From: a virus
Virus record (IMG/VR): IMGVR_UViG_3300042882_001139
Coordinates: 59,068-123,067 of that record
Reading direction: 5' to 3' (one strand)
DNA: 64,000 nucleotides
Of the stretch, positions 26,298-63,312 are shown piece after piece. How positions within the stretch are numbered: the first letter of the stretch is position 1; each line of letters starts with the position of its first letter. Under the pieces are notes generated by a model. The model made no database searches. It saw only the letters and a program-made list of their open reading frames with translations, and was not told where the DNA came from. The translations under genes and the position numbers were made by a program.

Positions 26298-27467
26298 TTA
26301 ACTGTTAGCCAGTTCGTACAGTTTGGCCAACGGAAGCAGTGAATCTTCAGAGGCTTGTTTCACGACGGCCGTCGCACCGCTTTCTTGCAGCAGCCGGTCT
26401 AAAGTCATGGCCATGCCGCGATCAAGTGTGGGGATAATCGCCGCGAGCTTGTCGCGGTCCATGTACACGCCACCAGCACTGACAGCGTCTACGAAGTCAT
26501 CACCCAGCCATTCCCGGACGTCCTCAACCGCCAGTTTCTCAAGATCGGATAACGAGTAAACATTACCAGTTGTGGTTTCGACGTTGTCGGCCATAAACGC
26601 CCGAGCGACCTTTTCCGTGATAGCAAAGAGCACCTCTTCAGGCCTGGACAGCCCGCCCGAATCGTACAGGCGATTAAGATGCGTATTCCTATCAAAAGTG
26701 TCGACCGCGCTCGCCAACTTAAGACGCACCTCGACCGACCGGGCCCGTTCAGGGTTTTGGTCGATAGCGTCGGCTAACTTGGACAACTCACCCGCCAAGT
26801 CATGATACTTGCGCTGAGTAAGCCTTACGCGATCTTTGAGCATGTCACTGGCAACCTTGGAAGCACAAACCCCCAGGCCAGCCGCGAGTGCCAGCGTATC
26901 GTCGGCCTCGCTAACGTCGGCGTCATACTGCGCCGCTTTGTTTAAGATTTTTGTGGCAATAACGTGCCGGTCGTTAAACGTAAACTCGTCACGGTACTTT
27001 TTAAAATGCGCCGCGGCAAATTTAACTTCAGTGGCGTTACGCAGCGGCCACTGGCGAACAGCCCCGCCCTCGCTAGCCCACACAATAGCGAAATCAGAAT
27101 CGGGCAGCGTTGTCAGATCGGAGGCGTTCGAGGCGGCTACCTTCTCTTCCAGCCCGCGTACCAACCCGGCAATACCGAAGTATTCTGCGGCGGTATTAAT
27201 ACGTTGCCGGATCTCACCCGCAACCTTTTCGTTAAACTCAGCCTGCTTGTCCGCGAAGAATAACGCAGACATCCATGTTGCGGGACCGGTGTGACACGGG
27301 TAAAGTTTATTGTGCTGGTCAGCGTATAAATGACGCGGAAGGTCTGTACCGACCAGTCGATCCTCGGATGCATTTTTAACAAAGTCGGGCGCGGCATACA
27401 GCGACGTTAAACGGTGCGTTTCGCGACCACTGACGTCGTGTGCGTGATCCAGCGGAATATTCGTCAT
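26298..27467 (-). CDS. Inverted single gene, probable phage structural protein
   Basis: A 389-residue acidic, mostly helical protein. The ATG at 27467 is chosen over an in-frame start 13 codons earlier because AGGTAGGT lies just upstream. An early element LYADQHNKLYPCHT (about residues 47-60), followed by an aromatic helix, resembles a motif I remember from uncharacterised large-phage proteins. The rest is long helices with few Cys. A scaffold, prohead or head role is possible but unproven. Its ATG overlaps the next + strand ATG by two bases. Confidence 0.55.
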   Translation of the reverse strand: MTNIPLDHAHDVSGRETHRLTSLYAAPDFVKNASEDRLVGTDLPRHLYADQHNKLYPCHTGPATWMSALFFADKQAEFNEKVAGEIRQRINTAAEYFGIAGLVRGLEEKVAASNASDLTTLPDSDFAIVWASEGGAVRQWPLRNATEVKFAAAHFKKYRDEFTFNDRHVIATKILNKAAQYDADVSEADDTLALAAGLGVCASKVASDMLKDRVRLTQRKYHDLAGELSKLADAIDQNPERARSVEVRLKLASAVDTFDRNTHLNRLYDSGGLSRPEEVLFAITEKVARAFMADNVETTTGNVYSLSDLEKLAVEDVREWLGDDFVDAVSAGGVYMDRDKLAAIIPTLDRGMAMTLDRLLQESGATAVVKQASEDSLLPLAKLYELANS

Positions 27468-30096
27468 GGGTTTACCTACCTGTTTAATTCGCCGACATAA
27501 CCACATTCGCGCCCTGTCGGCTCTTGGGGTAGCCCCGGAAACTCCTGCGTTTCCGGCTGTGGTTCTATGTCCATTATGTCAGGAAAATACCCTACATTTG
27601 TTTGACGATATTGTCACTGACGGTATCTGGCTGCACTGTAATTCGTGTTTAGCCCATGGAGATATCATAACCTTTGGGGCTCAAATCTGGAATACAAGTT
27701 TACCGCATGCCCTGTCAAAAATGGCGGAACTAGGGGTAATAACGCCGTCCGAAGCCGACAAAGCAGCGGCTGATTACGACCGGGCGTTTAGTCGTCAAAA
27801 AGCGGCTGAAACATTCTGGACGGCAGCGGCAAGTCAACTCTGGAATCACAGCGACGATTTGCTAGCCTGCCGGATCTACGACATCGGTTTAAAACCAGAG
27901 TATGACGTAACAAACCTTGTCGGAGCCGCACATCCTGATCAAGTATTAAAGTTGTGTCGCGAACTCGGGCGAGCAAAGCCACGTCTAGCCCGTAAAGACG
28001 GCTCTAGTCTTGTGCTGCCGTATTACACGCTTCCGGGCCGCCTGTCTGGTTTCTTATTGCTCCATTACTCCGCTGACGCAGAAATGCGTAAAACATTTAT
28101 CCCGGTCAGCGGGTATGACCGCCAACGCGTTGATGCCGGTTATTGCTTCTTGCCGAATCTTTTATTGCCGCCACCGACCGTGCTAAAAAACAAACAGTTT
28201 GTCGTAGAGGACCAGCTGTGGGCATTAAAAGAGCAGTGCCGGCAATTTAAGTACGGCCTACCCGCACTGCCCATCGTCGCCGGGTACGCCGGGCCGGAGG
28301 CGATTAGTTACGGCACTAATTGGAGCGCCCTGCCACCCACGCCCAGATTTTTTCAGGGCAATGCCGCTACACCAGAATTACTGAGTCAGGCGGCCAATGG
28401 AAAAGGCTACGTAAGCGTCGTGGCTCCTGACGTCGCGGCCCGGCCTAGTTGCCGGTATACGCTGCAGTGTCTCGCAAAAATATGTAGTGCCGCGGATACT
28501 TGGCAAAGCGTATTGAATAAAACGCTCGCCGGGCACAACGAGATGACGTCGTACTCATTTGCGACAAAACTGGCTATCGAACATAGCCGGCTACAGTTGT
28601 TCTTTAAAAACCACGGCGATCAATTCTCTGAAGACTTTGTGAAACGCGTACTGCAGACAATAGATCTGGCCCCGACAGCGCCGACAAGAACGCATAAAAA
28701 ATGGGTTTTGGTCGAGCAGGACAATGCGTGGTGGAACCATGTCGGGCAGCAGGTGTGCAATGCCCGCGTGGTAATCACGCAAATTATGCAGGCAGACGAC
28801 GGTGAAAAAATTTACGCCGGGCGTGTCTGCATGCGGGATTGGGAGATAACGTTCACAGAAAACGCACGACGAATCGAGCACATGGGGCTTCTTGCTTATG
28901 CAGCCGCCATCGCCGCCCCTCACGGGAAACTCATCACCTACGACAGGTCCTGGAATAAGCGCAGCCACCTTATTTCTATACAACTGCACAGCCCCGTGCT
29001 CACGCTTGTTTCCACAAAAACAGGCTGGGACGAGCAGGCGAGCATGTTTCGTTTCCGTGACTATGCGTTCACCAATGCCGGGGAAACTATAAACACGCCG
29101 GCGATAATTAAACAATCACAGGCGGTTAGTTTCCCAGAGCCGCTCGATGCCGGCCCGATTGGCGTGCGGCGCTTTCTAACAGCAGAAAATAAGAACGCGT
29201 TTGTCTGGGGCGTCTTTGGCACCATAGCCGCTAATTTAATTGCACCAATTGTCAGAAAAGATTGCGTCGCCACGGCTATATCTGGAGTCGCGTTTAATAC
29301 CGCCGCTCGAATCGGGGCAGCACTTGGTTGCCAGCAGCGGGTGACATCCACACTGCACCGCGCCAGCGTCGCCGACTTCTTGCGTAAAAACTCGGCCGAT
29401 TTACTCTGGCCGGTGTTTCTAGCCAGTGAGTTCAACGACGCCGACACAGCACCTAGCATTACACATATTCATAACAGACCGGTAATCGTGCGCATGCCAG
29501 AGTCCGGGGCGGTTGCCGCACTAGGTTACGGCTGGAACAAAATAAGCACCGGCGTAGCGCCCGACACGCTAAACGATTTTAGCGATTTGCGTTATGTACT
29601 GCCGGCCTATATCCGCCATACCCTGCTTAGCCGCATGAATCTGGTCGCCAAGTCACCAAATTTGGTCATCAGCGTTTTAACAGATTTGCACACATGGCTC
29701 GACGAGGTTTACGGCGCCACGTTTCATTTACCCCAAACGCTCCAGCAATTTGGCGTGTCGGAACGTGCCCACGAGGCTTTAATCCAAGAAATAGTTCGCG
29801 GCGTGCACCACGAAAAATTAGACGTAATTCCTAGGCCCCGGCGAAAAATGCAGCCAAAAAATTACCTGCTCCGCCGCAAAGAGTTTTGGTGGTTAAATCG
29901 CCGGGCCATAGATAACTATTTCACAAACGATAAAAATATTCCGCCAAACTGGCTCGGTGTTATAAACTTGCTAATTAATGACGGCGTGTTTGGCGGAGAA
30001 GAAACCGTCCAAGGTATGCCGGGCATTTTAGTCAGTACGCCGTGGTGTGATAACTACTGGACAAACAACGAGATTCCTGCAAGAGAAATTGGATAA
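27466..30096 (+). CDS. Primase-like replication protein (876 aa)
   Basis: The N-terminus carries CPLC (residues about 35-38) and CNSC (about 58-61) around short strands, the layout of a primase zinc-binding domain. Residues about 180-215 (VLPYYTLPGRLSGFLLLHY) resemble the start of a DnaG/TOPRIM-like region. The C-terminal half (about 480-876) is alpha/beta and resembles DUF927-type helicase modules, but I see no intact Walker A. It is probably a primase or primase-helicase relative acting at the replication fork. The ATG overlaps the opposite-strand ATG, and the ribosome site is weak. Confidence 0.5.
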   Translation: MGLPTCLIRRHNHIRALSALGVAPETPAFPAVVLCPLCQENTLHLFDDIVTDGIWLHCNSCLAHGDIITFGAQIWNTSLPHALSKMAELGVITPSEADKAAADYDRAFSRQKAAETFWTAAASQLWNHSDDLLACRIYDIGLKPEYDVTNLVGAAHPDQVLKLCRELGRAKPRLARKDGSSLVLPYYTLPGRLSGFLLLHYSADAEMRKTFIPVSGYDRQRVDAGYCFLPNLLLPPPTVLKNKQFVVEDQLWALKEQCRQFKYGLPALPIVAGYAGPEAISYGTNWSALPPTPRFFQGNAATPELLSQAANGKGYVSVVAPDVAARPSCRYTLQCLAKICSAADTWQSVLNKTLAGHNEMTSYSFATKLAIEHSRLQLFFKNHGDQFSEDFVKRVLQTIDLAPTAPTRTHKKWVLVEQDNAWWNHVGQQVCNARVVITQIMQADDGEKIYAGRVCMRDWEITFTENARRIEHMGLLAYAAAIAAPHGKLITYDRSWNKRSHLISIQLHSPVLTLVSTKTGWDEQASMFRFRDYAFTNAGETINTPAIIKQSQAVSFPEPLDAGPIGVRRFLTAENKNAFVWGVFGTIAANLIAPIVRKDCVATAISGVAFNTAARIGAALGCQQRVTSTLHRASVADFLRKNSADLLWPVFLASEFNDADTAPSITHIHNRPVIVRMPESGAVAALGYGWNKISTGVAPDTLNDFSDLRYVLPAYIRHTLLSRMNLVAKSPNLVISVLTDLHTWLDEVYGATFHLPQTLQQFGVSERAHEALIQEIVRGVHHEKLDVIPRPRRKMQPKNYLLRRKEFWWLNRRAIDNYFTNDKNIPPNWLGVINLLINDGVFGGEETVQGMPGILVSTPWCDNYWTNNEIPAREIG

Positions 30097-30910: not shown

Positions 30911-31272
30911 CTGCTGAACACAAGGCTGTCCTGATTGACCCGTACAAAGAAGAAGTCACAGACGTCACGTATAACGGCGACTACAAGCAAATCTATGAGC
31001 ACATCAAGGTCGATTGTTTTGCGTTGGTGCGTCTGGCTGATGACGATGACGTCTTTGTTGACGACGAAGGCTTACTCAAACTCGAGCCCAGCACTAAGTT
31101 TTTTGCACTGCCCGACTACCCGCAACCGCTGGCGGGTTACGGTTTAGTTCTTGGCAATGATAACGAGGGCGAATCAATCAGTGCTCATCACGACGCGGCT
31201 TTTTACCGCGAACGCGTTAAATTCATGACCATGCGACAATTTGCGGCTATTAGCGCCATCGATTTTGGGTAA
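30907..31272 (+). CDS. DUF3846-like small acidic protein
   Basis: A 121-residue protein starting in an ATGA overlap with the previous stop. The order VLIDPYKEEVTDV, an acidic DDDVFVDDEGLLK turn, a FFALPDYPQPLAGYGLVLG segment and a DNEGES tail matches, from memory, phage proteins of the DUF3846 type. Their function is unknown. It ends just before tRNA-Thr. Confidence 0.5.
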   Translation: MTAEHKAVLIDPYKEEVTDVTYNGDYKQIYEHIKVDCFALVRLADDDDVFVDDEGLLKLEPSTKFFALPDYPQPLAGYGLVLGNDNEGESISAHHDAAFYRERVKFMTMRQFAAISAIDFG

Positions 31273-31284
31273 ACTGTGCGGATC

Positions 31285-31357
31285 GCCGGCGTGGCACAAT
31301 TGGCAGCGCAACTGATTTGTAATCAGTAGGTTGCGGGTTCGACTCCCGCCGCCGGCT
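31285..31357 (+). tRNA. tRNA-Thr (anticodon TGT)
   Basis: A 73-base cloverleaf. The acceptor GCCGGCG pairs fully with CGCCGGC. The anticodon stem ACTGA/TCAGT holds the loop TTTGTAA (anticodon TGT, reading ACA). The T-arm is GCGGG-TTCGACT-CCCGC. The D-stem has one A-C mismatch. No CCA is encoded. Phage tRNAs often supply codons that the phage uses more than the host. Confidence 0.93.
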
Positions 31358-31392
31358 ATAGTTAAACTCGTGTGCCAGGTATGGAGGCCTAT

Positions 31393-31842
31393 ATGGACGA
31401 GATTAACATTTACATCAAAGACATCAATCAATTGCGGCCGGTTGATGTCGCTGCTATTTGTTCGCGGCTTTCGTGGCCAGACTCAGGCAGTGCGAGCTCT
31501 ATTCAAAAAGAACTGGATAAGCGTTACCTCAACCCGCAGCCAGGCCCGCACCCCAACATGGCAATAGCCTTCGTGTGGCTTAAAGGTGTTTTAGTCGGCT
31601 GGGTGGGCACACGCCCATGGCGCGAGCATGTAAAAGACACGTTTGTCGCTGTGCAGACGGTGGAATGCTTTGTCGACCCGGCGTTCCGGCGGCGGGGCTT
31701 TGCTCGATTAGGCTTGCAGGCACTTATCAGCACTGGTTATCTCGACAAAGAGAAACTAGTCGCGGGCTATGCAGATGATGTGCTTCCTCTCGCAACATCG
31801 TGCGGCTGTCGCAACGTCATTCTTGGCGACAGCGCTAAATAA
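31393..31842 (+). CDS. GNAT-family N-acetyltransferase
   Basis: A 149-residue protein. The ATG at 31393 has a perfect GGAGG five bases upstream, so it is preferred to earlier in-frame starts. Around residues 83-105 the sequence VECFVDPAFRRRGFARLGLQAL gives the GNAT acetyl-CoA loop (R-R-x-G-x-A) after a strand. GNAT enzymes move an acetyl group to an amine on a small molecule or protein; the substrate cannot be told here. It lies between tRNA-Thr and a repeat array. Confidence 0.7.
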   Translation: MDEINIYIKDINQLRPVDVAAICSRLSWPDSGSASSIQKELDKRYLNPQPGPHPNMAIAFVWLKGVLVGWVGTRPWREHVKDTFVAVQTVECFVDPAFRRRGFARLGLQALISTGYLDKEKLVAGYADDVLPLATSCGCRNVILGDSAK

Positions 31843-31850
31843 CATACTTA

Positions 31851-32680
31851 TGGTCGGCTGGCGTAAGGTCAGGTCCGGCTCGGTATGGCGGCGTAAGGTT
31901 AGGTTTTTTCTTTCAAAACTTTATCGTTAGGTCGGGTCTGGTGACGTGAGGTGTTGTAACGTTCGATCGGGTATGGTTTTTTCTTTCAAAACTTTGTGGT
32001 TAGCTTCGGTCGAATGCCGTCGGGTTAGGTTTGGTACGGTGTGGCAGGGTTTTTCTTTTTCAAAACTGTAGCGTGGGGCAGGGTAAGTTGGGGTTTGGTC
32101 AGATCTGGTTTTTTCTTTCAAACATATAAGGTGTTGTAACGTCGTGTAGGGTCTTGTCCGGTACGGCATGGTACGGTATGGCGGGATCAGGTCAGGTATG
32201 GTTTTTTTCTCAACAAGCGTACGGCAGGGTATCGTTAGGCTCGGTTTTGTTTGGTTTTCTCTTCTCAAAATTTTGCGGTCAGGTCCGGTATCGTTGCGTT
32301 TTGTCCGGTAGCTTTCGGTATGGTTTTTTCAAATAATTTGCGTTAGGTCCGGTACGGTTCGGTAGTGTCTGTTTTGGCAACGTTTGATTTCGTTCGGTAA
32401 CGCATGGCGCTATTGGGTTTGGTTCGGTTTTTTCTTTCAAAACAATTTAGGGTGCGGTCTGGTTCGGTAGCGTAACGTCAGGCACGGTAAGGTCTGGTTT
32501 TCTCTTTCAAACAAAATAGGGTTTGGCTCGGTGGGGTGGCATAAGCTGGGGTTTGGTCAGGTCTGGTTTTTTCTTTCAAACAAAATATGGTCCGGTAAGG
32601 TCGGGTAACGTCCGGTAAGGTAACGCAGGGTGACGTTGGGTTTGGTTTTTTCTTTCAAAACAATTAGGGTAGGTTGCGGT
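31851..32680 (+). repeat. Non-coding GGTNN pentamer array with T-rich linkers
   Basis: About 830 bases without a convincing gene. The + strand is mostly GGTNN pentamers kept in phase, for example ggtcc-ggtaa-ggtcg-ggtaa, with GT repeating every 5 bases. The blocks are broken 11 times by a linker close to GGTTTTTTCTTTCAAAAC, at 31902, 31975, 32048, 32107, 32200, 32253, 32322, 32426, 32496, 32565 and 32644. The mean spacing is about 74 bases (range 53-104). The strand is G/T-rich. It could be an origin, a recombination or packaging site, a protein-binding array or a GU-rich RNA. Confidence 0.85.
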
Positions 32681-32710
32681 TTTATGTGCTGCGGAAACTA
32701 CACATAAACC
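32678..32710 (+). promoter_or_regulatory. Hairpin between the array and the HNH gene
   Basis: GGTTTTATGTG (32678-32688) pairs with CACATAAACC (32701-32710) with a single T bulge, leaving a 12-base loop. It ends just before the AGGGG ribosome site of the HNH gene. It could end transcripts leaving the repeat array or regulate the HNH mRNA. Confidence 0.4.
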
Positions 32711-32721
32711 AGGGGTAACAA

Positions 32722-33039
32722 ATGGATTCAACGACGTTAAATTATGCCGTGCGCATGGCCAGATATGACTGGTGTGAAAAGCGCACGCAACGTCTAGTGA
32801 TTGACAACTATGAATGCCAAACGTGTTTGCACGACGGATCTGTATATCAGCTCGAAGTGCATCACAAGACGTATGAACGGTTTGGCGAAGAGGATGTCGA
32901 AAAAGATTTAATTACGCTATGCAGCGAGTGTCACGAAGCAATAACAAATGTAATACGAGCTCGTCGCTACAAAAACAAAGACTTGGGCTGTAATTACATT
33001 GTTCCCACGATTCATCAACGGAAGGACATAGATCAATGA
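32722..33039 (+). CDS. HNH endonuclease
   Basis: A 105-residue protein with CxxC at residues 32-35, LEVHHKTY (His47-His48) as the catalytic HH strand, and DLITLCSECHEAI with C67, C70 and H71. Together these form a zinc-supported beta-beta-alpha-metal HNH fold that cleaves DNA. It may serve packaging, homing or defence. It is followed directly (4-base overlap) by a conserved phage gene and preceded by the GGTNN array, which it might act on, although nothing shows that. Confidence 0.8.
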   Translation: MDSTTLNYAVRMARYDWCEKRTQRLVIDNYECQTCLHDGSVYQLEVHHKTYERFGEEDVEKDLITLCSECHEAITNVIRARRYKNKDLGCNYIVPTIHQRKDIDQ

Positions 33040-33728
33040 GTTGGGTTAATGTTGATTACAAGATCACCGGGGACGGCCCGATGGTTGTGAAAAACGTTCA
33101 GATGGCAAACCCGCTGAACAAGTTCTCTAAGGCGCTCAAGAGCGTCAGTTCGAAGCGCGTCAAGACCGACGCCGACCACATCGAGATGGGGCATATTGAG
33201 TTCCTCGGCAGCCTGCATATGCACGAGGAGTTGGGTCCCGTACTGCCCGGTGCGACCATCGTAGCAGCGATTAACGCCGCGGCTCGAAAGACCAAGGAAG
33301 GCCAGCTCGCCAAGTGCGCTGTGTTCGCGGCGCCCCCGGGATTCTTTAAGTTAGAGTACGCCGGTCCGCGCGAGCCGGAAGCAATGTTTGAAGACACGTC
33401 GCCCCGCCCGACTCCGGAAGCCGAAGGTTTCCGGTTCACCACGCTGGTGGCGCGGCAGCAGTCTCGCGTCGTCTCGACTCGGCCAATCTTCCATGACTGG
33501 TCGGCTGTTGTGTCGATTTCGTTCGAGGACTCAATCATCAATTTTGCCCAACTTGATCGCTGGATCAAGAAAGCGGGCACGATGTGCGGCCTGTGCGAGT
33601 GGCGGCCTAGGTTCGGGCGCTTCACGGCTGATTGCCTCACGCCTGGCATGAGTGCCGTGTACGGCGAAGAGCCCACTGAGGCTGCGATGAAGAAGCGTCG
33701 TGCTTCGAAGTCGCTCGTCAAGGTCTGA
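33036..33728 (+). CDS. Conserved phage protein with RPRFGRF motif
   Basis: A 230-residue soluble protein. Near residues 195-205 it has CEWRPRFGRFTAD, an ending I recall from many uncharacterised phage proteins that also share an LPGATIVAAINAAARK-type helix and a TRPIFHDWSAVVSI strand, both present here. The fold is probably a two-lobed alpha/beta domain; no function is known to me. Codons end strongly in G/C. It overlaps the HNH gene by 4 bases, so they are likely co-translated. Confidence 0.65.
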   Translation: MSWVNVDYKITGDGPMVVKNVQMANPLNKFSKALKSVSSKRVKTDADHIEMGHIEFLGSLHMHEELGPVLPGATIVAAINAAARKTKEGQLAKCAVFAAPPGFFKLEYAGPREPEAMFEDTSPRPTPEAEGFRFTTLVARQQSRVVSTRPIFHDWSAVVSISFEDSIINFAQLDRWIKKAGTMCGLCEWRPRFGRFTADCLTPGMSAVYGEEPTEAAMKKRRASKSLVKV

Positions 33729-33758: not shown

Positions 33759-33777
33759 CTTGTACACGGAGTTAAAA

Positions 33778-34023
33778 ATGAAACGCTATCACGAAGAAAA
33801 GCACATTCTAGAAAATCGCGCTAAGTTGCGCCGGCACTTACTTTGGTCTTTAATCGGAAATTGGCCAGAAGTAGAAGCCGGTCGATTCAGAAAGTCTTTA
33901 CGTTGTGCTGGCTGCGCCCGAGCTCGTTGTCAGGTATGCCACCCGGAAAAATACCCCAAACGGCAACTGACTATTAAAGAACAGAAGTCAAATTACGACT
34001 TCAAAGATTACGAAACCACTTAG
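33778..34023 (+). CDS. Small Cys/His zinc-binding-like protein
   Basis: An 81-residue basic protein starting at an ATG with GGAG seven bases upstream. The motif CAGCARARCQVCHPEKYPKRQ (residues about 41-61) holds four Cys and one His. From memory it resembles small proteins of unknown function with the pattern C-x2-C-x4-C-x2-CH-x-EK-x-PKR. A zinc site is likely; the role is unknown. Confidence 0.6.
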   Translation: MKRYHEEKHILENRAKLRRHLLWSLIGNWPEVEAGRFRKSLRCAGCARARCQVCHPEKYPKRQLTIKEQKSNYDFKDYETT

Positions 34024-40523: not shown

Positions 40524-41987
40524 ATGTACCTGTACGTGAACGAAGACGCTGACGCTGTTGGTTTTATGCCGAGCAACCGTGGTCGTATGGCCGCGAATCA
40601 CTATAACCGCGAAGATATTGAAGTGGCTGTCAGCGTTGTTCCAAACGAACTTATCAGCGCTGAAGGCACGACTGCCAAGAAGTTAAAGGACTGGGTAATC
40701 GAGAACGGGTCTGCCTCTGATAGCGACGCAGTGTCCGGCGAATCGGTCGCCTATGGCGTGCTCGTCGCGATGATCGATACGCTGTCCGGCTCGATGTGGG
40801 AGAAACAGCGTAACTCCCTTCAGGCACTTGTAGACGAATTCAACGCTGCCGACGGCTGCCCAGGTTCTGACTGGATGGGTCGTGCAGTGGCTGTTATTAA
40901 CTTGAACAAGCGGGCTGTGAACTCGATCATGAACGAGCGAAAGTACGGCTGGTTCATTAACGGTCACCCCAAGGCAATTGCCGCCGCAGAGAAGGCGGCC
41001 GAAATGTCGTTTGGAACGCCGGTTGCGGGTAACGATTACGGCTTCGCCCGGATGACCAAGGAGTCTCCAAAGCTCGGTGTGGTTAGTGCGGAAGCCGAAA
41101 AGGAAAAGGACGAAGAGCACGGCGTCTTTTATCCGAAGTCTGACACGACGTACATCATTAACCCGCAAATCGAGCGCCTGTTTGGAATTCTGGAAACGTC
41201 CAGCAAAAAGTGCCCGCAAAATGTTAATCTTATCGGACCACATGGTTGCGGTAAGACTGAACTGGCCATCCAGTTTGCAGCCCGACACGATCGGCCGCTG
41301 CTGATCATGGACTGCGCTAATCTCCGTGAGGCTCGCGACTGGTTCGGGTACAAGTCTGCCCGCGAGGGCACCGTGTTCTGGCATGAGTCGCAGTTTGTGC
41401 GTGCGGTGCAGAACGGCAACCACGTCATCCTGCTCGACGAGCTTAACCGTGCAAATCCGAATCTGCTCAATACGTTGATGCCGATTCTGGACGCCCGCCG
41501 GTTTACATACCTTGAGGAGAAGGGCGACAAGATCATCGTCGGGCCGGGTACGGTGTTCTTTGCGTCGATGAACGAGGGCGCCGGCTATACCGGTACGTCG
41601 GCACTCGACCGTGCGATTCGAGATCGTTTCCCGCGTGCCGTCGAACTGACGTATCTTGCCGAAAGCGACGAGGTAAAGTTGCTTGTTAACCGTACTGGCG
41701 TAACCAAGGACATTGCGTCGCGGCTCGTACAGATGGCTAACAAGATCCGGCAAGATTCGACTGGACTGTCGGCTACGCTGACGGAAAGCCTGTCTACCCG
41801 GCAGTTGATCGCGGCAGCCCACGACTTTGTGCTGGGCGGCGTTGACACCCTGCAGTTTACAATCACAAACCATTTCTCTCCCGAAGGCGACGACGATTCC
41901 GAGCGCGTCAAGGTGCAGAGCATTATTCAGGGCAAGTTTGGTGACCTGATCGCGGCCCAGGCGGCGGCGACCAGCAAGGGAGCCTAA
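40524..41987 (+). CDS. MoxR/CobS-like AAA+ ATPase
   Basis: A 487-residue protein with an unassigned N-terminal region (1-225). The AAA core has Walker A GPHGCGKTE (238-246), Walker B VILLDELNR (301-309) and FFASMN (about 348-353) as sensor 1. The GxxGCGKTE and LLDELNRA forms are typical of the MoxR and CobS clade. These ATPases work with VWA partners as chaperone-like remodelers. Here the partner is encoded immediately downstream (3-base gap). Confidence 0.85.
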   Translation: MYLYVNEDADAVGFMPSNRGRMAANHYNREDIEVAVSVVPNELISAEGTTAKKLKDWVIENGSASDSDAVSGESVAYGVLVAMIDTLSGSMWEKQRNSLQALVDEFNAADGCPGSDWMGRAVAVINLNKRAVNSIMNERKYGWFINGHPKAIAAAEKAAEMSFGTPVAGNDYGFARMTKESPKLGVVSAEAEKEKDEEHGVFYPKSDTTYIINPQIERLFGILETSSKKCPQNVNLIGPHGCGKTELAIQFAARHDRPLLIMDCANLREARDWFGYKSAREGTVFWHESQFVRAVQNGNHVILLDELNRANPNLLNTLMPILDARRFTYLEEKGDKIIVGPGTVFFASMNEGAGYTGTSALDRAIRDRFPRAVELTYLAESDEVKLLVNRTGVTKDIASRLVQMANKIRQDSTGLSATLTESLSTRQLIAAAHDFVLGGVDTLQFTITNHFSPEGDDDSERVKVQSIIQGKFGDLIAAQAAATSKGA

Positions 41988-41990
41988 TTA

Positions 41991-44900
41991 ATGGCAGATA
42001 AAAAGTGGAAGTCTCTGTGGGGCAACTACGAAGCCGAAAAGGATACCGACGAGGCTAAGAAGCCTCGCGGTCCTCGGCCAAATCCAGATTATCGATCTAT
42101 TGAAGACGACGGCGACGAACACGGACCAATTGGTTTTCACACTGAAAAGTCAGGCGGTTATTCCTCTTACGGCGATTATGCTGCCGATGATCGCGCGGGT
42201 TCTGATTACGGCGGATACGGATACAGCGGCTACAGTTACAGCGAGTCGTTTGACGATTCGGACATGGACTGGTATCGCCGAAACAGTTTTCGATATAGTC
42301 GCAATGTCGATTACTCGCCTTCTAGCTTGTTTCGTTCGACGTTTTCTAGTCGTACGTCATTTGCTTACGGTACAGACAGCGACGCACAGAACAAGGCGAT
42401 CCGTGCACTGCGCAACCTGACACGCAGTGCCAATACGATTGTCGATAAGACTGGTCAAAATAAGACGTCATTTGCTGTGCAGTTTAGCCAGGGCTCTGAC
42501 AGCAACGGCGTCACCGACGCATTAAACGACAACAAACAGCGTGTCGTTTTTGTGTCGCCCGACGACCTGCTGGCGAGCGATACGGCCGAAGTCGAAGACG
42601 CGATTGTCGACGCACTTACAGGGTTTGTATTGCTTCGTGTGCAGATTTCGCAGGATATCACTCCTGACGTGCTGGGACCAATTAACGGCACAGGTCTGCA
42701 ATTGATTGGCTTTCACGCGGCCAAAGAATTTTTCGCAAATGACGCAAATTTTAGCAAGTTAGACGCCAAGAAAATGGCACTCGCTACAACCGAGTACTAC
42801 CTGGCTGGAATGCTTGCAAAAAGCATGCTCACGCGGCTGGCTCGCCGTACGGTGGTGTCAGACTGGGGTGGTTTCGCGCCCTACTTCGTGCGTCACGCGA
42901 AAAAGTTTATTACGGTACGTGAAAACCTGGAAAAGGCAGAACCGTCGTTAGAAGCGATTGTAGGCCGGCTGGCTTACAACATGATCGCTGATGAGGACCC
43001 GCTAGCCATTCCAGAGCAAGTAGCCGAACTCGCGTCAAAGCATTTGGGTGCCGAGGTCGAGCCGGCAAACTTGCTTGAGACGTGTCAGAAGCTTGTACAC
43101 GACATCAGCGATTTGTTGCATAAAGAAAACGAAGATGCCCCCGCAGGCGATATTGAAAACGCCCTGCAGGATATGTTCAAGCAGGCACAAGAAGAGCAGA
43201 GTAAGACGAGTACTGGTGCCAGTGCAATGAAGGATATGCTGACCTGTCTCGGCGAGGGTATGGGCGATATTGCAGAGCAGCAGCGCAACGGGTTGGCAAA
43301 AAGCAACGAGCAAGAAGAATTGTTGGCACGGGCAGGCAGCAAGGCGCGTGGTGAGCAGTCTATTGAGCAGTTAATCAAAGCGATTAAGTCGCTCGATAAG
43401 CAGCTTGAAAGTGTTAAGTCTAGTTGTGCCGACGAGCATCTCACCCCCGCCGCCAAGCGTTCAACCGTTGACACGCTGCGGCATCAAATAGCCTACGCGC
43501 TGCAGGCTCGGCCGCAGGCAATAGAGGCTTTGGAAAAAGCGGGTGTGGCAGAAGCTCGCGAGTTTGTACCGAATCTCGATAAACTGCACGCCGAATTAAT
43601 GAGTACAGCGCCGACCGAAAAGGACGTCGAAAAAGTCCAAAGCCTGCTAGAAGATCTTGTTAAAAAGGCAAAAGCCGCAGCTAAGACGCTTCACGGCCCA
43701 AACAAGACAGAAGTTCAAGAGGCAATTCACGGGGCAAAAACTCATTTTGAAACCCAGCGAGAAAAGTTCGTAGAGATTCAAGCAAAACTTGAAAAACTGC
43801 GAAATGACGTTGCGGCCGGCCCCACGTTACACGGCGAAAAAGTGTGTGCAACAGCGTTGTTAAATAAACTTATTGAGGGTGTTTCCACTTATATTCAGAC
43901 AATCAAAGACAATCTGCCGCGCATCGAGCATTCTGAGAATCTTGTCGCGGAGTGTCGTACGTCAGACAAACTGGTAACACAGCTTAACGCAGTCAGATCC
44001 GTAATGTCGGCACTTAATAGTCGTGCTGCACATACGTTTTATGACAACTATGAGTTGCACACTAGTGGACTGCTGCGGAACTTGGTTCGCGAGTTGAGCC
44101 AGGCGATGCAACATGATGACCTGCCTAAATCAGCGGCTGTGCCCGTGGCCGTAGAAAATACCATGGGCCACGAGGCAATCTCCGACGTTGGATTTCTCGC
44201 ACAGTTGCTTGAGACGCTGTCGGGCGGCTTTCTGTCAAAGTTAAGCGGGCTGGAACCGATAGAGCGCCGTAACGCGATAGCCGCGCCCAAGCTCGACCTA
44301 GATACGATGGAAAAGTTAATTCGGGCATTGAATACGCTCAGGGGTTCCGCCAAAGACAGCAGTGCTGCAGAAAAGACCGCGGAAAACGTTAATGAAAAGA
44401 TGGGGGCCGCACATGCGGCATTTAGTCCGGTTGACGGTGGTTTGTTCGGCGAAAAGGTTGAGGCTAAGACCAAGGTTTTGACTGGCGACGCTATCGGTCA
44501 CGTTAATGACGAGGCCAGCAACGCCCAAGAAGAAGAGTATGTTGCGTATTTAAACAACAGCGATTCTACAAAACCAAAGGCACGGGTGCGCGAAGAAAGT
44601 GGTCGCCTCGGTGACAGCCAAAAGACTGTGCAAATCGTACGTACGAAAAACAAAAACGCTATTGCACGTATTCGGAGTGCATTGCAGTTCCAGGCGGGCC
44701 GCCGCAGCGTTGAAGTTCACGGCTTATTGTCCGGCGATCTCGACGAGGGCAGCCTGCATAAGTTGGATTACGACTGCGAACATATCTGGTCGCAAAAGAC
44801 GATAAGCAAACTGCCCGACGTGGCAGTCGGTTTACTCGTTGACCAGTCTGGTAGCATGTCAGGCCCCAAAATCAACAGTGCCCGTGACATCTGCATTATG

Positions 44901-45413
44901 CTCGCCGAGGCGGTCAGAAAGATCGCGGGAGTGCGTTTGTATGTTTACGGTCACACTGCTAATGAGTTTGGTGCCGACTCAATGACTATTTTTGAGCACT
45001 ATACGCCGCGCGACGGTGAAAATTTAACCAGGCTCGGCGGTATTCGTGCACATTCCAACAATTACGACGGCTACGCTATCAAAGATGTAGCAAAACGGCT
45101 GTCAGAGGATCAGGCTAAAAAGAAGTACTTGTTTGTAATTGCCGACGGTTTGCCAGCTGGTTCTGGCTACGGCGGTGAAACTGCTGAAAAGCATGTCACG
45201 AGCGTGTGCAAATTCACACGTGAGCGCCTCAAGATCAGCACATATGCGTTCGCTGTTGGCGTGCACGGTACGCAGCAGGGTGCTTTTAAGCGACAGTATG
45301 GCGACAAGCACGTTGTGTTTGTCAACGATGTCGCGAAGTGCTTGCCGCAAATTGTGCGTTTCCTCAGAAACGCAATGCAGCAAGAACGGAAGTTGGTCGG
45401 GATCGGAGACTAA
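41991..45413 (+). CDS. CobT-like VWA-domain protein (1140 aa)
   Basis: The first 120 residues are Asp/Gly/Tyr/Ser-rich and probably disordered. Residues about 130-900 are largely helical, with long Glu/Lys/Ala coiled-coil-like stretches. The C-terminal third (about 930-1140) is a VWA domain with the MIDAS motif DQSGSMSG (about residues 951-958), preceded by AVGLLV. It is the likely partner of the upstream AAA ATPase, like CobT with CobS. In the cell the pair inserts metals or remodels proteins; the phage target is unknown. Confidence 0.8.
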   Translation: MADKKWKSLWGNYEAEKDTDEAKKPRGPRPNPDYRSIEDDGDEHGPIGFHTEKSGGYSSYGDYAADDRAGSDYGGYGYSGYSYSESFDDSDMDWYRRNSFRYSRNVDYSPSSLFRSTFSSRTSFAYGTDSDAQNKAIRALRNLTRSANTIVDKTGQNKTSFAVQFSQGSDSNGVTDALNDNKQRVVFVSPDDLLASDTAEVEDAIVDALTGFVLLRVQISQDITPDVLGPINGTGLQLIGFHAAKEFFANDANFSKLDAKKMALATTEYYLAGMLAKSMLTRLARRTVVSDWGGFAPYFVRHAKKFITVRENLEKAEPSLEAIVGRLAYNMIADEDPLAIPEQVAELASKHLGAEVEPANLLETCQKLVHDISDLLHKENEDAPAGDIENALQDMFKQAQEEQSKTSTGASAMKDMLTCLGEGMGDIAEQQRNGLAKSNEQEELLARAGSKARGEQSIEQLIKAIKSLDKQLESVKSSCADEHLTPAAKRSTVDTLRHQIAYALQARPQAIEALEKAGVAEAREFVPNLDKLHAELMSTAPTEKDVEKVQSLLEDLVKKAKAAAKTLHGPNKTEVQEAIHGAKTHFETQREKFVEIQAKLEKLRNDVAAGPTLHGEKVCATALLNKLIEGVSTYIQTIKDNLPRIEHSENLVAECRTSDKLVTQLNAVRSVMSALNSRAAHTFYDNYELHTSGLLRNLVRELSQAMQHDDLPKSAAVPVAVENTMGHEAISDVGFLAQLLETLSGGFLSKLSGLEPIERRNAIAAPKLDLDTMEKLIRALNTLRGSAKDSSAAEKTAENVNEKMGAAHAAFSPVDGGLFGEKVEAKTKVLTGDAIGHVNDEASNAQEEEYVAYLNNSDSTKPKARVREESGRLGDSQKTVQIVRTKNKNAIARIRSALQFQAGRRSVEVHGLLSGDLDEGSLHKLDYDCEHIWSQKTISKLPDVAVGLLVDQSGSMSGPKINSARDICIMLAEAVRKIAGVRLYVYGHTANEFGADSMTIFEHYTPRDGENLTRLGGIRAHSNNYDGYAIKDVAKRLSEDQAKKKYLFVIADGLPAGSGYGGETAEKHVTSVCKFTRERLKISTYAFAVGVHGTQQGAFKRQYGDKHVVFVNDVAKCLPQIVRFLRNAMQQERKLVGIGD

Positions 45414-63189: not shown

Positions 63190-63203
63190 CAGTTCTCGGC
63201 ACA

Positions 63204-63272
63204 ACTAGTGTAGCTCAGTGGTAGAGCGCCGGATTGTATCGGCAGGTCGCGGGTTCGATTCCCGCCACTAGT
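63204..63272 (+). tRNA. tRNA-like gene with short anticodon arm
   Basis: The acceptor ACTAGTG/CACTAGT, D-arm GCTC/GAGC and T-arm GCGGG-TTCGATT-CCCGC are perfect. The anticodon arm is two bases short: CCGGA-TTGTA-TCGGC or GCCGG-ATTGTA-TCGGC, with a 5- or 6-base loop, so the anticodon cannot be read. Outside this gap it resembles tRNA-His-type genes. It may be a broken tRNA, a decoy or a tRNA with an unusual loop. Confidence 0.6.
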
Positions 63273-63312
63273 TTTCGGAGGCTGACGTTTTAGTTATGAT
63301 CGCGAGGCATAT

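What the first reader, a model, noticed from the sequence alone, without database searches (positions are those of the whole stretch)
31851..32680. A phased GGTNN pentamer array broken by 11 T-rich linkers
For about 830 bases the + strand keeps GT every five bases (GGTNN) and is interrupted every 53-104 bases (mean about 74) by GGTTTTTTCTTTCAAAAC-like linkers. Runs such as ggtcc-ggtaa-ggtcg also place GG pairs 3 bases apart, which could form two-tier G-quadruplexes. The bias is strongly G/T on one strand. It is neither CRISPR nor coding. It could be an origin, a pac or recombination site, an array for a phage DNA-binding protein or a GU-rich RNA. I know of no described element with this structure.
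Basis: partly seen in the sequence, partly recalled or inferred. Interest (0 to 1): 0.85.

Follow-up and report, generated by a model that had tools for sequence, protein, structure and literature searches.

The report
Phage guide-RNA array, VIPR type
The odd stretch of five-base repeats looks like an array of eleven guide RNAs of VIPR, a CRISPR-like phage system described in 2026, lying just before an HNH nuclease gene and the gene of the guide-binding protein in an uncultured phage.

Summary
In detail: lag-5 autocorrelation z = 11.2, GGT pairs at spacing 5 34 against 2.6 in shuffles, 11 T-rich linkers with mean spacing 74.2. It is best read as a vrRNA array of a VIPR system (bioRxiv 2026.04.26.720920, PMC13142463): GGY positions are kept, NN positions carry 0.05 and 0.00 bits. 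The gene at 33036-33728 matches the solved SUSP1 Vipr protein (PDB 36pp) at E = 2.6e-26. Among 30 phage records searched, arrays and this gene family occur in the same 8. Each unit is a guide of 7-17 NN plus a T-rich tail. Decoded by the published 1-nt-skip rule, guide 10 spells a primase motif (recalled), with one exact, codon-phased match in IMG/VR. Differences from SUSP1: an HNH gene overlapping vipr, an unstructured tail, looser GGY, eleven guides. Related HNH genes precede vipr on Bradyrhizobium and Azospirillum plasmids. Known kind, new member; targets remain unproven and nothing here shows expression.

The parts
31285..31357 (+). tRNA-Thr (TGT) that marks the conserved gene slot in which the module sits
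   Evidence: ARAGORN, Rfam; a tRNA-Thr also stands near the module in L005, L006, L104, L048
31372..31842 (+). GNAT acetyltransferase gene, left border of the module (not part of VIPR)
   Evidence: Pfam PF00583; in non-carriers such as L031, L057, L095 its homologue abuts the homologue of 33760-34023
31852..31904 (+). vrRNA guide 1, 10 NN
   Evidence: parsed
31925..31977 (+). vrRNA guide 2, 10 NN (decodes to YRL[DE][DE]V[KN]SR[IM]; 18/20 match in one relative contig, L105/L050)
31998..32050 (+). vrRNA guide 3, 10 NN
32067..32109 (+). vrRNA guide 4, 8 NN (shares its last five NN with guide 10)
32130..32202 (+). vrRNA guide 5, 14 NN
32218..32255 (+). vrRNA guide 6, 7 NN
32277..32324 (+). vrRNA guide 7, 9 NN
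32341..32428 (+). vrRNA guide 8, 17 NN
32451..32498 (+). vrRNA guide 9, 9 NN
32520..32567 (+). vrRNA guide 10, 9 NN (decodes to [FL]SGG[KN]G[FL][HQ]L)
32589..32646 (+). vrRNA guide 11, 11 NN
31905..32661 (+). span of the eleven T-rich 3' tails, one after each guide (TTTTTTCTTTCAAAAC-like, first at about 31905-31919, last at about 32647-32661)
   Evidence: two of them folded, no meaningful structure
32668..32680 (+). degenerate 12th unit
32678..32710 (+). possible hairpin between array and HNH gene (GGTTTTATGTG ... CACATAAACC)
   Evidence: seen in sequence; the fold of 32660-32720 is not better than shuffles, z = -0.31
32722..33039 (+). HNH endonuclease gene, candidate vap; its stop overlaps the vipr start (ATGA)
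   Evidence: Pfam PF01844 E = 2.6e-8; overlap seen in window, L005 and L006
33036..33728 (+). vipr gene (230 aa, phrog_4652), RAMP (Cas7-like) protein
   Evidence: PHROG E = 1.3e-43; phmmer to PDB 36pp SUSP1 Vipr E = 2.6e-26; Foldseek of a weak model
33760..34023 (+). conserved 87-aa gene, right border of the module (not part of VIPR)
   Evidence: homologues directly after GNAT in non-carriers such as L031, L057, L095

Best explanation
The stretch is a precursor for about eleven VIPR guide RNAs (vrRNAs). Each unit is a run of GGY/NN pentamers ending in a short T-rich tail. Inferred working: the array is transcribed on the + strand, cut into single vrRNAs at or near the tails, and each is coated by the Cas7-like protein encoded at 33036-33728, one subunit per pentamer, which holds the GGY and exposes the NN pairs. 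The complex reads DNA in steps of three bases (NN paired, one base skipped), so guides fit codons with the wobble base ignored. It silences rival phages or satellites, and with the coupled HNH protein it may cut them. Shown here: the array, the Vipr identity, their co-occurrence, the HNH overlap. Reported in the preprint for the SUSP1 system, not shown here: expression, RNP formation, 1-nt skip, silencing. Inferred here: processing at the tails, one subunit per pentamer, targets, HNH action.
For: 5-base phase and GGY/NN information profile. Window protein to SUSP1 Vipr in the PDB, E = 2.6e-26. A low-confidence AlphaFold model (pLDDT 53, pTM 0.52) whose 50 listed Foldseek matches (of 409 at E <= 10, none at E <= 0.001) are all from CRISPR effector complexes or Cas7-family subunits, best E 2.2e-3. 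Arrays and phrog_4652 in the same 8 of 30 records (1/C(30,8) = 1.7e-7, but the 8 hold about six lineages, and six records were put in as known carriers). Phased GGY runs beside phrog_4652 genes also in Felixounavirus VpaE1, SUSP1, LESphi2, two Gordonia phages, one Mycobacterium phage and plasmids. Vipr dN/dS 0.18 between window and L005 and 0.011 between L005 and L006. NN pairs fit codon positions 1-2 better than the other two registers or background. Guide 10: one exact match in IMG/VR, codon-phased, in a gene with a DnaB-like helicase half and the recalled primase motif. L006 guide 3 (a relative's guide): 20/22 in 33 held loci, in a AAA ATPase gene, skipped bases at wobble positions.
Against: No transcript data. 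Promoter scan of 31200-33100 found none (0, shuffles mean 2.0). The two tails folded are not structured, unlike the SUSP1 clade's pseudoknot. GGY exact in only 72 of 114 pentamers. Guides 4 and 6 are short and guide 8 long against the published 9-16 repeats. Target evidence is modest: of 28 guides two reach E <= 0.028 in 8.5 million positions (only one of them, guide 2, from the window, and in one contig), while 69 of 14,560 shuffled guides do; a skip-3 hit (window guide 7, 17/18) reached E 0.013 by chance. Guide 2 has no exact match in IMG/VR. For window guides the codon-register margin is only about 2 log units. HNH between L005 and L006 gives dN/dS 0.53 on very few changes and was saturated against the window, so selection on HNH is not shown.
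Confidence: 0.93

Rival explanations
1. An RNA sponge or attenuator: the GGU/NN repeats titrate or bind a ring protein such as TRAP, one subunit per five nucleotides.
For: Five-nucleotide period and about ten units per block recall TRAP's (G/U)AG sites (recalled, no call).
Against: Units run from 7 to 17 NN, not a fixed ring size; the neighbouring gene is a Vipr homologue; the NN positions are random. No search for a TRAP gene was made.
Confidence: 0.02
2. A DNA element: replication origin, pac or centromere site bound by a phage protein, or a two-tier G-quadruplex / R-loop zone.
For: Strong G/T strand bias (GC skew 0.27 in 32001-33000); GG pairs three bases apart.
Against: GT is kept better than GG; arrays go with the phrog_4652 gene and were found in none of 22 sister records, several of about 200 kb, though records may be incomplete; in G013 the array lies about 81 kb from the terminase gene on the contig. 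No origin or G-quadruplex prediction was run.
Confidence: 0.02
3. It is a VIPR array but the system is silent or decayed in this phage (leftover guides).
For: Exact GGY in only 72 of 114; short and over-long units; degenerate 12th unit.
Against: Vipr shows purifying selection; the 861 bases are identical in three records; the departures at position 1 are mostly to C (23 of 33), a patterned rather than random relaxation.
Confidence: 0.08

Closest known systems
VIPR system of Escherichia phage SUSP1 (preprint PMC13142463; PDB 36pp; record KT454805.2)
   Same: Vipr homologue (31.9% identity by tblastn; E = 2.6e-26), GGY/NN runs in intergenic DNA next to vipr, phage-borne
   Different: The preprint reports four vrRNAs (one upstream, three downstream) with structured tails and vap1; here eleven guides, all upstream, unstructured T-rich tails, an upstream HNH gene, and after vipr the 87-aa gene that non-carriers also have
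HNH-Vipr loci on Bradyrhizobium and Azospirillum plasmids (CP126019.1, NZ_CP126014.1, NZ_CP054621.1, NZ_CP054617.1)
   Same: HNH reading frame directly before vipr in 4 of 5 plasmid loci read (of 6 found). Three of the HNH proteins match the window's by BLASTP in tiny databases (1.4e-18, 7.3e-18, 4.3e-13); the fourth (NZ_CP054617.1) was judged by eye
   Different: One short GGY/NN run after vipr in each, weak in NZ_CP126014.1 and inside the annotated gene in NZ_CP054617.1; the phage has eleven units before HNH
Class 1 CRISPR-Cas (Cas7/Csm3 backbone on crRNA)
   Same: RAMP protein thought to polymerise on a guide RNA, with periodic base skipping (from the preprint and recalled)
   Different: No identical repeats with unique spacers, no cas-named match among the neighbours tested; 5-nt instead of 6-nt period; guide information only in NN
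TRAP protein of Bacillus (trp attenuation)
   Same: Trinucleotides spaced by about 5 nt bound by successive subunits (recalled)
   Different: Fixed motif and ring size (recalled); here GGY and variable unit length

Membership tests
VIPR | Vipr, a RAMP homologue | tested here: met
   phmmer to SUSP1 Vipr (36pp) E = 2.6e-26 over residues 7-204; CRISPR Cas7-family fold matches from a weak model
VIPR | vrRNA of tandem YNNGG repeats, GGY conserved and NN hypervariable | tested here: met
   114 pentamers: 0.83/1.32/1.46 bits at GGY, 0.05/0.00 at NN; but exact GGY in only 72 of 114
VIPR | 9-16 repeats per vrRNA | tested here: inconclusive
   7-17 NN per unit; guides 6 (7 NN), 4 (8 NN) and 8 (17 NN) fall outside or at the edge, depending on how ends are counted
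VIPR | Invariable 3' tail after the repeat tract | tested here: met
   T-rich tail, somewhat variable, after each of 11 units; related tail in L005 and L006
VIPR | Tail with conserved structure (stated for the SUSP1 clade) | tested here: not met
   two of eleven tails folded, z = -0.49 and +0.36; the preprint claims this for the SUSP1 clade only, so it bears on the subtype
VIPR | vap gene involved in DNA interaction | tested here: inconclusive
   HNH gene overlapping vipr, recurrent on plasmids; whether it equals one of vap1-6 could not be checked, supplements not available
VIPR | 1-nt skip target rule | tested here: inconclusive
   lowest E-values at skip 1 but only modestly beyond shuffles; exact codon-phased match of guide 10
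VIPR | vrRNA expressed and bound by Vipr | not testable with these tools
   needs sRNA-seq and pull-down
CRISPR-Cas | identical direct repeats separated by unique spacers, with cas genes | tested here: not met
   direct-repeat families in the array are 61-88% alike; no cas-named match among the neighbours tested, apart from a far sub-cut-off NCBIfam match of the HNH protein to IscB (28.9 bits, cut-off 175)
TRAP site | fixed number of (G/U)AG triplets per ring (recalled) | tested here: not met
   GGY not NAG, unit length variable

The most novel reading that the evidence does not exclude
A phage-carried, HNH-coupled VIPR that cuts rather than only silences its rivals, with an expanded array of eleven guides whose U-rich unstructured tails are the cleavage sites; the pair HNH-vipr has moved between plasmids and phages, and two distant VIPR kinds replace one another in the same tRNA-Thr slot of one phage clade, as if that slot were a weapons bay. 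The preprint's main text ties predicted nucleases to types III and V, found in host defence islands.
Probability: 0.35. Interest if true: 0.75.

Novelty: new member of a known kind. Interest (0 to 1): 0.55.

Why it matters
VIPR is a months-old discovery (a preprint) with a new RNA-guide code and a claim to precede CRISPR. This locus adds a phage lineage with eleven readable guides, a nuclease gene overlapping vipr, sister phages with and without the system, and a second VIPR kind in the same slot. That makes guide turnover, target choice and the role of the nuclease testable by comparison.

Tried and rejected
Coding reading: rejected, stops in all six frames. G-quadruplex, R-loop, origin: not favoured, see rivals; no dedicated prediction was run. 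TRAP-like ring or host-protein sponge: not favoured, variable unit length and the neighbouring gene. Rfam: no family in the array at gathering scores; in seven relatives' loci only a tRNA-Thr and two matches below their families' gathering scores. blastn of 31200-33400 in named phages: 219 records; the 20 rows shown are the tRNA-Thr region except one piece of the vipr gene; 199 records were not listed. The linker pattern scan of IMG/VR returned 14 stretches, of which 4 hold arrays, all of the two lineages already known. Four of 12 pattern-positive records (G014, G016, G018, G031) were dropped as not arrays after reading their matches. A profile search with the first three Vipr sequences gave no new loci. 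Guide 2 exact scan of IMG/VR: none. Relatives of the guide-10 hit protein: only itself; no other window guide matches that contig's 17.6-kb stretch or the 13 genome loci convincingly. phrog_4652 in 369 genomes of one class: none, but the control was silent, so no conclusion. The structure model is too weak to use alone. The second genes of L104 and VpaE1 are not detectably related (E = 0.34). The primase reading of guide 10 rests on a motif I recalled; Pfam names only the DnaB-like helicase half of the hit.

Full report
1. What was claimed and what is there. The region reads as described. Against 300 dinucleotide-preserving shuffles the lag-5 autocorrelation has z = 11.2, with further peaks at 10, 15, 20, 25 and around 69-74; GGT is followed by GGT five bases on 34 times, 2.6 expected. 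Eleven T-rich linkers lie 53-104 bases apart, mean 74.2. Parsing from each linker backwards gives runs of pentamers: 114 in all, with 0.83, 1.32 and 1.46 bits at the three GGY positions and 0.05 and 0.00 bits at NN; exact GGY in 72 of 114. So NN is free and GGY is held, loosely at its first base. Stops occur in all six frames.

2. Relatives. The window is part of a 123-kb virus record, G000; two of five other IMG/VR records searched carry the same 861 bases at 100%. In a diverged lineage (L005, L006; Vipr 62% and terminase 77% identical) the same element stands before the same two genes, but as GGCNN/GGTNN with a related T-rich tail. A terminase-profile search found 119 relatives, of which 80 were returned, in contigs up to 205 kb; a search with an 876-aa neighbour gave 18 loci, mostly of the same contigs. 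A 5-phase scan separated carriers sharply from the rest: window lineage, L005/L006, L104 (also L093, L089) and L048. A whole-record pattern search over 30 records added G013 and G017; four other pattern-positive records were not arrays on inspection.

3. The companion gene. Every array seen in this clade lies next to a phrog_4652 gene. Searching that family in the same 30 records gave 8 matches, G000, G001, G004, G005, G006, G007, G013 and G017, exactly the eight with arrays, and none in the other 22. Six of the eight were put in as known carriers and some are close relatives, so about six lineages support this; the records may be incomplete. The same pairing holds in named phages: Felixounavirus VpaE1, SUSP1, Pseudomonas LESphi2, Gordonia MakoManhole and Trine, Mycobacterium LittleE; Listonella phiHSIC has the gene but only a weaker phased stretch (AGCAAAGC-like, score 0.204), which I do not count.

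4. Literature. A text search listed PMC13142463, bioRxiv 2026.04.26.720920; I read its outline, text parts 1 and 2 of 4 (abstract to the start of the reference list) and its figure legends, and searched it for terms ('HNH' and 'tRNA' do not occur in the main text). It describes VIPR: a RAMP protein, Vipr, with vrRNAs of 9-16 YNNGG repeats and a 3' tail; NN pairs read DNA with one skipped base per step, usually the wobble base; natural targets are satellites and prophages; seven types; array forms named are those of type II, staggered, hammerhead-interspersed and single; predicted nucleases are ascribed to types III and V, enriched in host defence islands. Two more searches found no other paper (none; this one only). 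Supplements were not available to me.

5. Membership. The window protein alone matches the PDB entry for SUSP1 Vipr (36pp) at E = 2.6e-26. The AlphaFold model is weak (pLDDT 53, pTM 0.52), yet the 50 Foldseek matches listed, of 409, are all from CRISPR effector complexes or Cas7-family subunits; the best has E 2.2e-3 and none passes 0.001. Other branches are far: L104's protein reaches 36pp only at E = 0.98 and L121's at 6e-4, but both match phrog_4652. Vipr shows purifying selection (dN/dS 0.18 window-L005, 0.011 L005-L006).

6. Anatomy here. Order: tRNA-Thr, GNAT, eleven guides with T-rich tails, HNH (105 aa), vipr (230 aa), then a conserved 87-aa gene. In non-carriers such as L095, L031 and L057 GNAT is followed at once by the homologue of the 87-aa gene, so the module looks like an insertion. 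In L104 and L048 the same slot holds a different VIPR kind: a distant Vipr (E = 8e-5 between L104's and the window's), a phrog_15946 gene (60% between L104 and L048) and a GGC-rich array without T-linkers, followed by a hairpin (L104 z = -7.6, L048 z = -1.75); no GNAT homologue was listed for L048. In G013 that second kind lies elsewhere, beside tRNAs and a tmRNA, with a strong terminator-like hairpin (z = -5.7). The HNH stop overlaps the vipr start as ATGA in window, L005 and L006. An HNH frame also precedes vipr on four of five plasmid loci read, of six found: three by BLASTP, one by eye; in the fifth, from B. barranii, I saw none. So HNH-vipr is a recurring pair, though selection on HNH is not shown and a homing origin is not excluded. 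In named phages the HNH protein has one weak match. The two T-rich tails folded show no meaningful structure.

7. Guides and targets. Twenty-eight guides of window, L005, L006 and L121 were tested with 0, 1, 2 and 3 skipped bases against 8.5 million positions of held phage sequence, arrays masked; an earlier, smaller scan also held guides of L123 and L124. Skip 1 gave the lowest E: L006 guide 3, 20/22 in 33 held loci (some near-duplicates), in a AAA ATPase gene (Pfam AAA), the skipped bases at wobble positions and varying between phages; and window guide 2, 18/20 in a small gene of one contig (L105/L050), also codon-phased. In a shuffled-order control 12 of 14,560 guides reach 0.0023 and 69 reach 0.028, against 1 and 2 of 28 real ones: suggestive, not proof. 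A skip-3 hit at E 0.013 shows the noise. The AAA ATPase homologue was found in only one (L048) of 11 carrier stretches compared, so self-targeting was not seen, but those stretches are incomplete. Window guide 10 reads [FL]SGG[KN]G[FL][HQ]L, which I took, from memory, for the primase motif SGGKGFH before scanning; its one exact IMG/VR match is codon-phased in a 612-aa protein with a DnaB-like helicase half. In the genome collection it has 13 exact matches, five with the longest frame in the predicted phase (about two expected), three of these being near-identical archaeal proteins at that site; such hits show that the string resembles the motif, not that these organisms are targets. Guide 4 ends with the same five NN pairs as guide 10. 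The NN pairs of 36 guides (some shared between L005 and L006) fit codon positions 1-2 (log-likelihood -1142) better than 2-3 (-1159), 3-1 (-1228) or background (-1167); the window's eleven give -318.5, -320.3, -334.8 and -320.9, a small margin.

8. Guide turnover. L005 and L006 have near-identical HNH (99.1%) and vipr (96.4% at DNA level) but differ in whole guide units. Four guides are shared: one pair is identical (L005 6 / L006 6), one differs only at two Y positions (5 / 4), one at one Y and one NN base (3 / 2), one at three GGY bases and one NN base (1 / 1). The numbers are too small to say that NN is kept better than Y.

9. Verdict. The element is best read as a VIPR vrRNA array with its Vipr protein: a new member of a very recently described kind. 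The HNH coupling in a phage, the eleven-unit array with unstructured tails and two VIPR kinds in one slot may amount to a variant, but without the preprint's supplements I cannot say that it is not one of its seven types.

Noticed in passing
L122 1646-1691, 2979-3024, 3097-3142; L127 3588-3633, 3709-3754: In two Gordonia phages the GGY runs are flanked by 46-base elements that look by eye like the acceptor stem plus T-arm of a tRNA (GGTTCGACTCC loop), differing in stem sequence between the phages. They could be RNase P/Z cleavage signals between guides; ARAGORN was not run on them and no Rfam tRNA match appeared at E <= 0.5.
   Followed up: partly
L120 4950-7765 (G013 about 65000-67800): A VIPR of the second kind lies directly beside two tRNAs and a phage tmRNA (tag GASAPALAA), away from the slot used in its sister phages.
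   Followed up: partly
L121 5300-6000: G017 array with units of 9-15 NN and a T-rich linker CATGTTCTTTTACRTTGAGCC; three guides share their first three NN pairs.
   Followed up: no
window 27466-30096: 876-aa protein with no PHROG or Pfam match and no tblastn match in named phages, fast-evolving (34% to L005) beside a terminase that is 77% identical.
   Followed up: no
L005 5827-7178: Two minus-strand genes (DUF6065, 2OG-Fe(II) oxygenase) between GNAT and the array in one lineage, not seen in its near twin L006.
   Followed up: no
window 40524-45413: An ATPase gene (best PHROG named porphyrin biosynthesis, E 1.2e-38) beside a 1140-aa gene with a CobT-like PHROG match (E 1.5e-10), perhaps a cobaltochelatase-like pair.
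   Followed up: no
window 63203-63274: tRNA gene for which ARAGORN gives a two-base anticodon.
   Followed up: no
G014:C1:1-50: Contig end that is nearly a run of G, probably a sequencing artefact; it produced most of that record's false array matches.
   Followed up: yes
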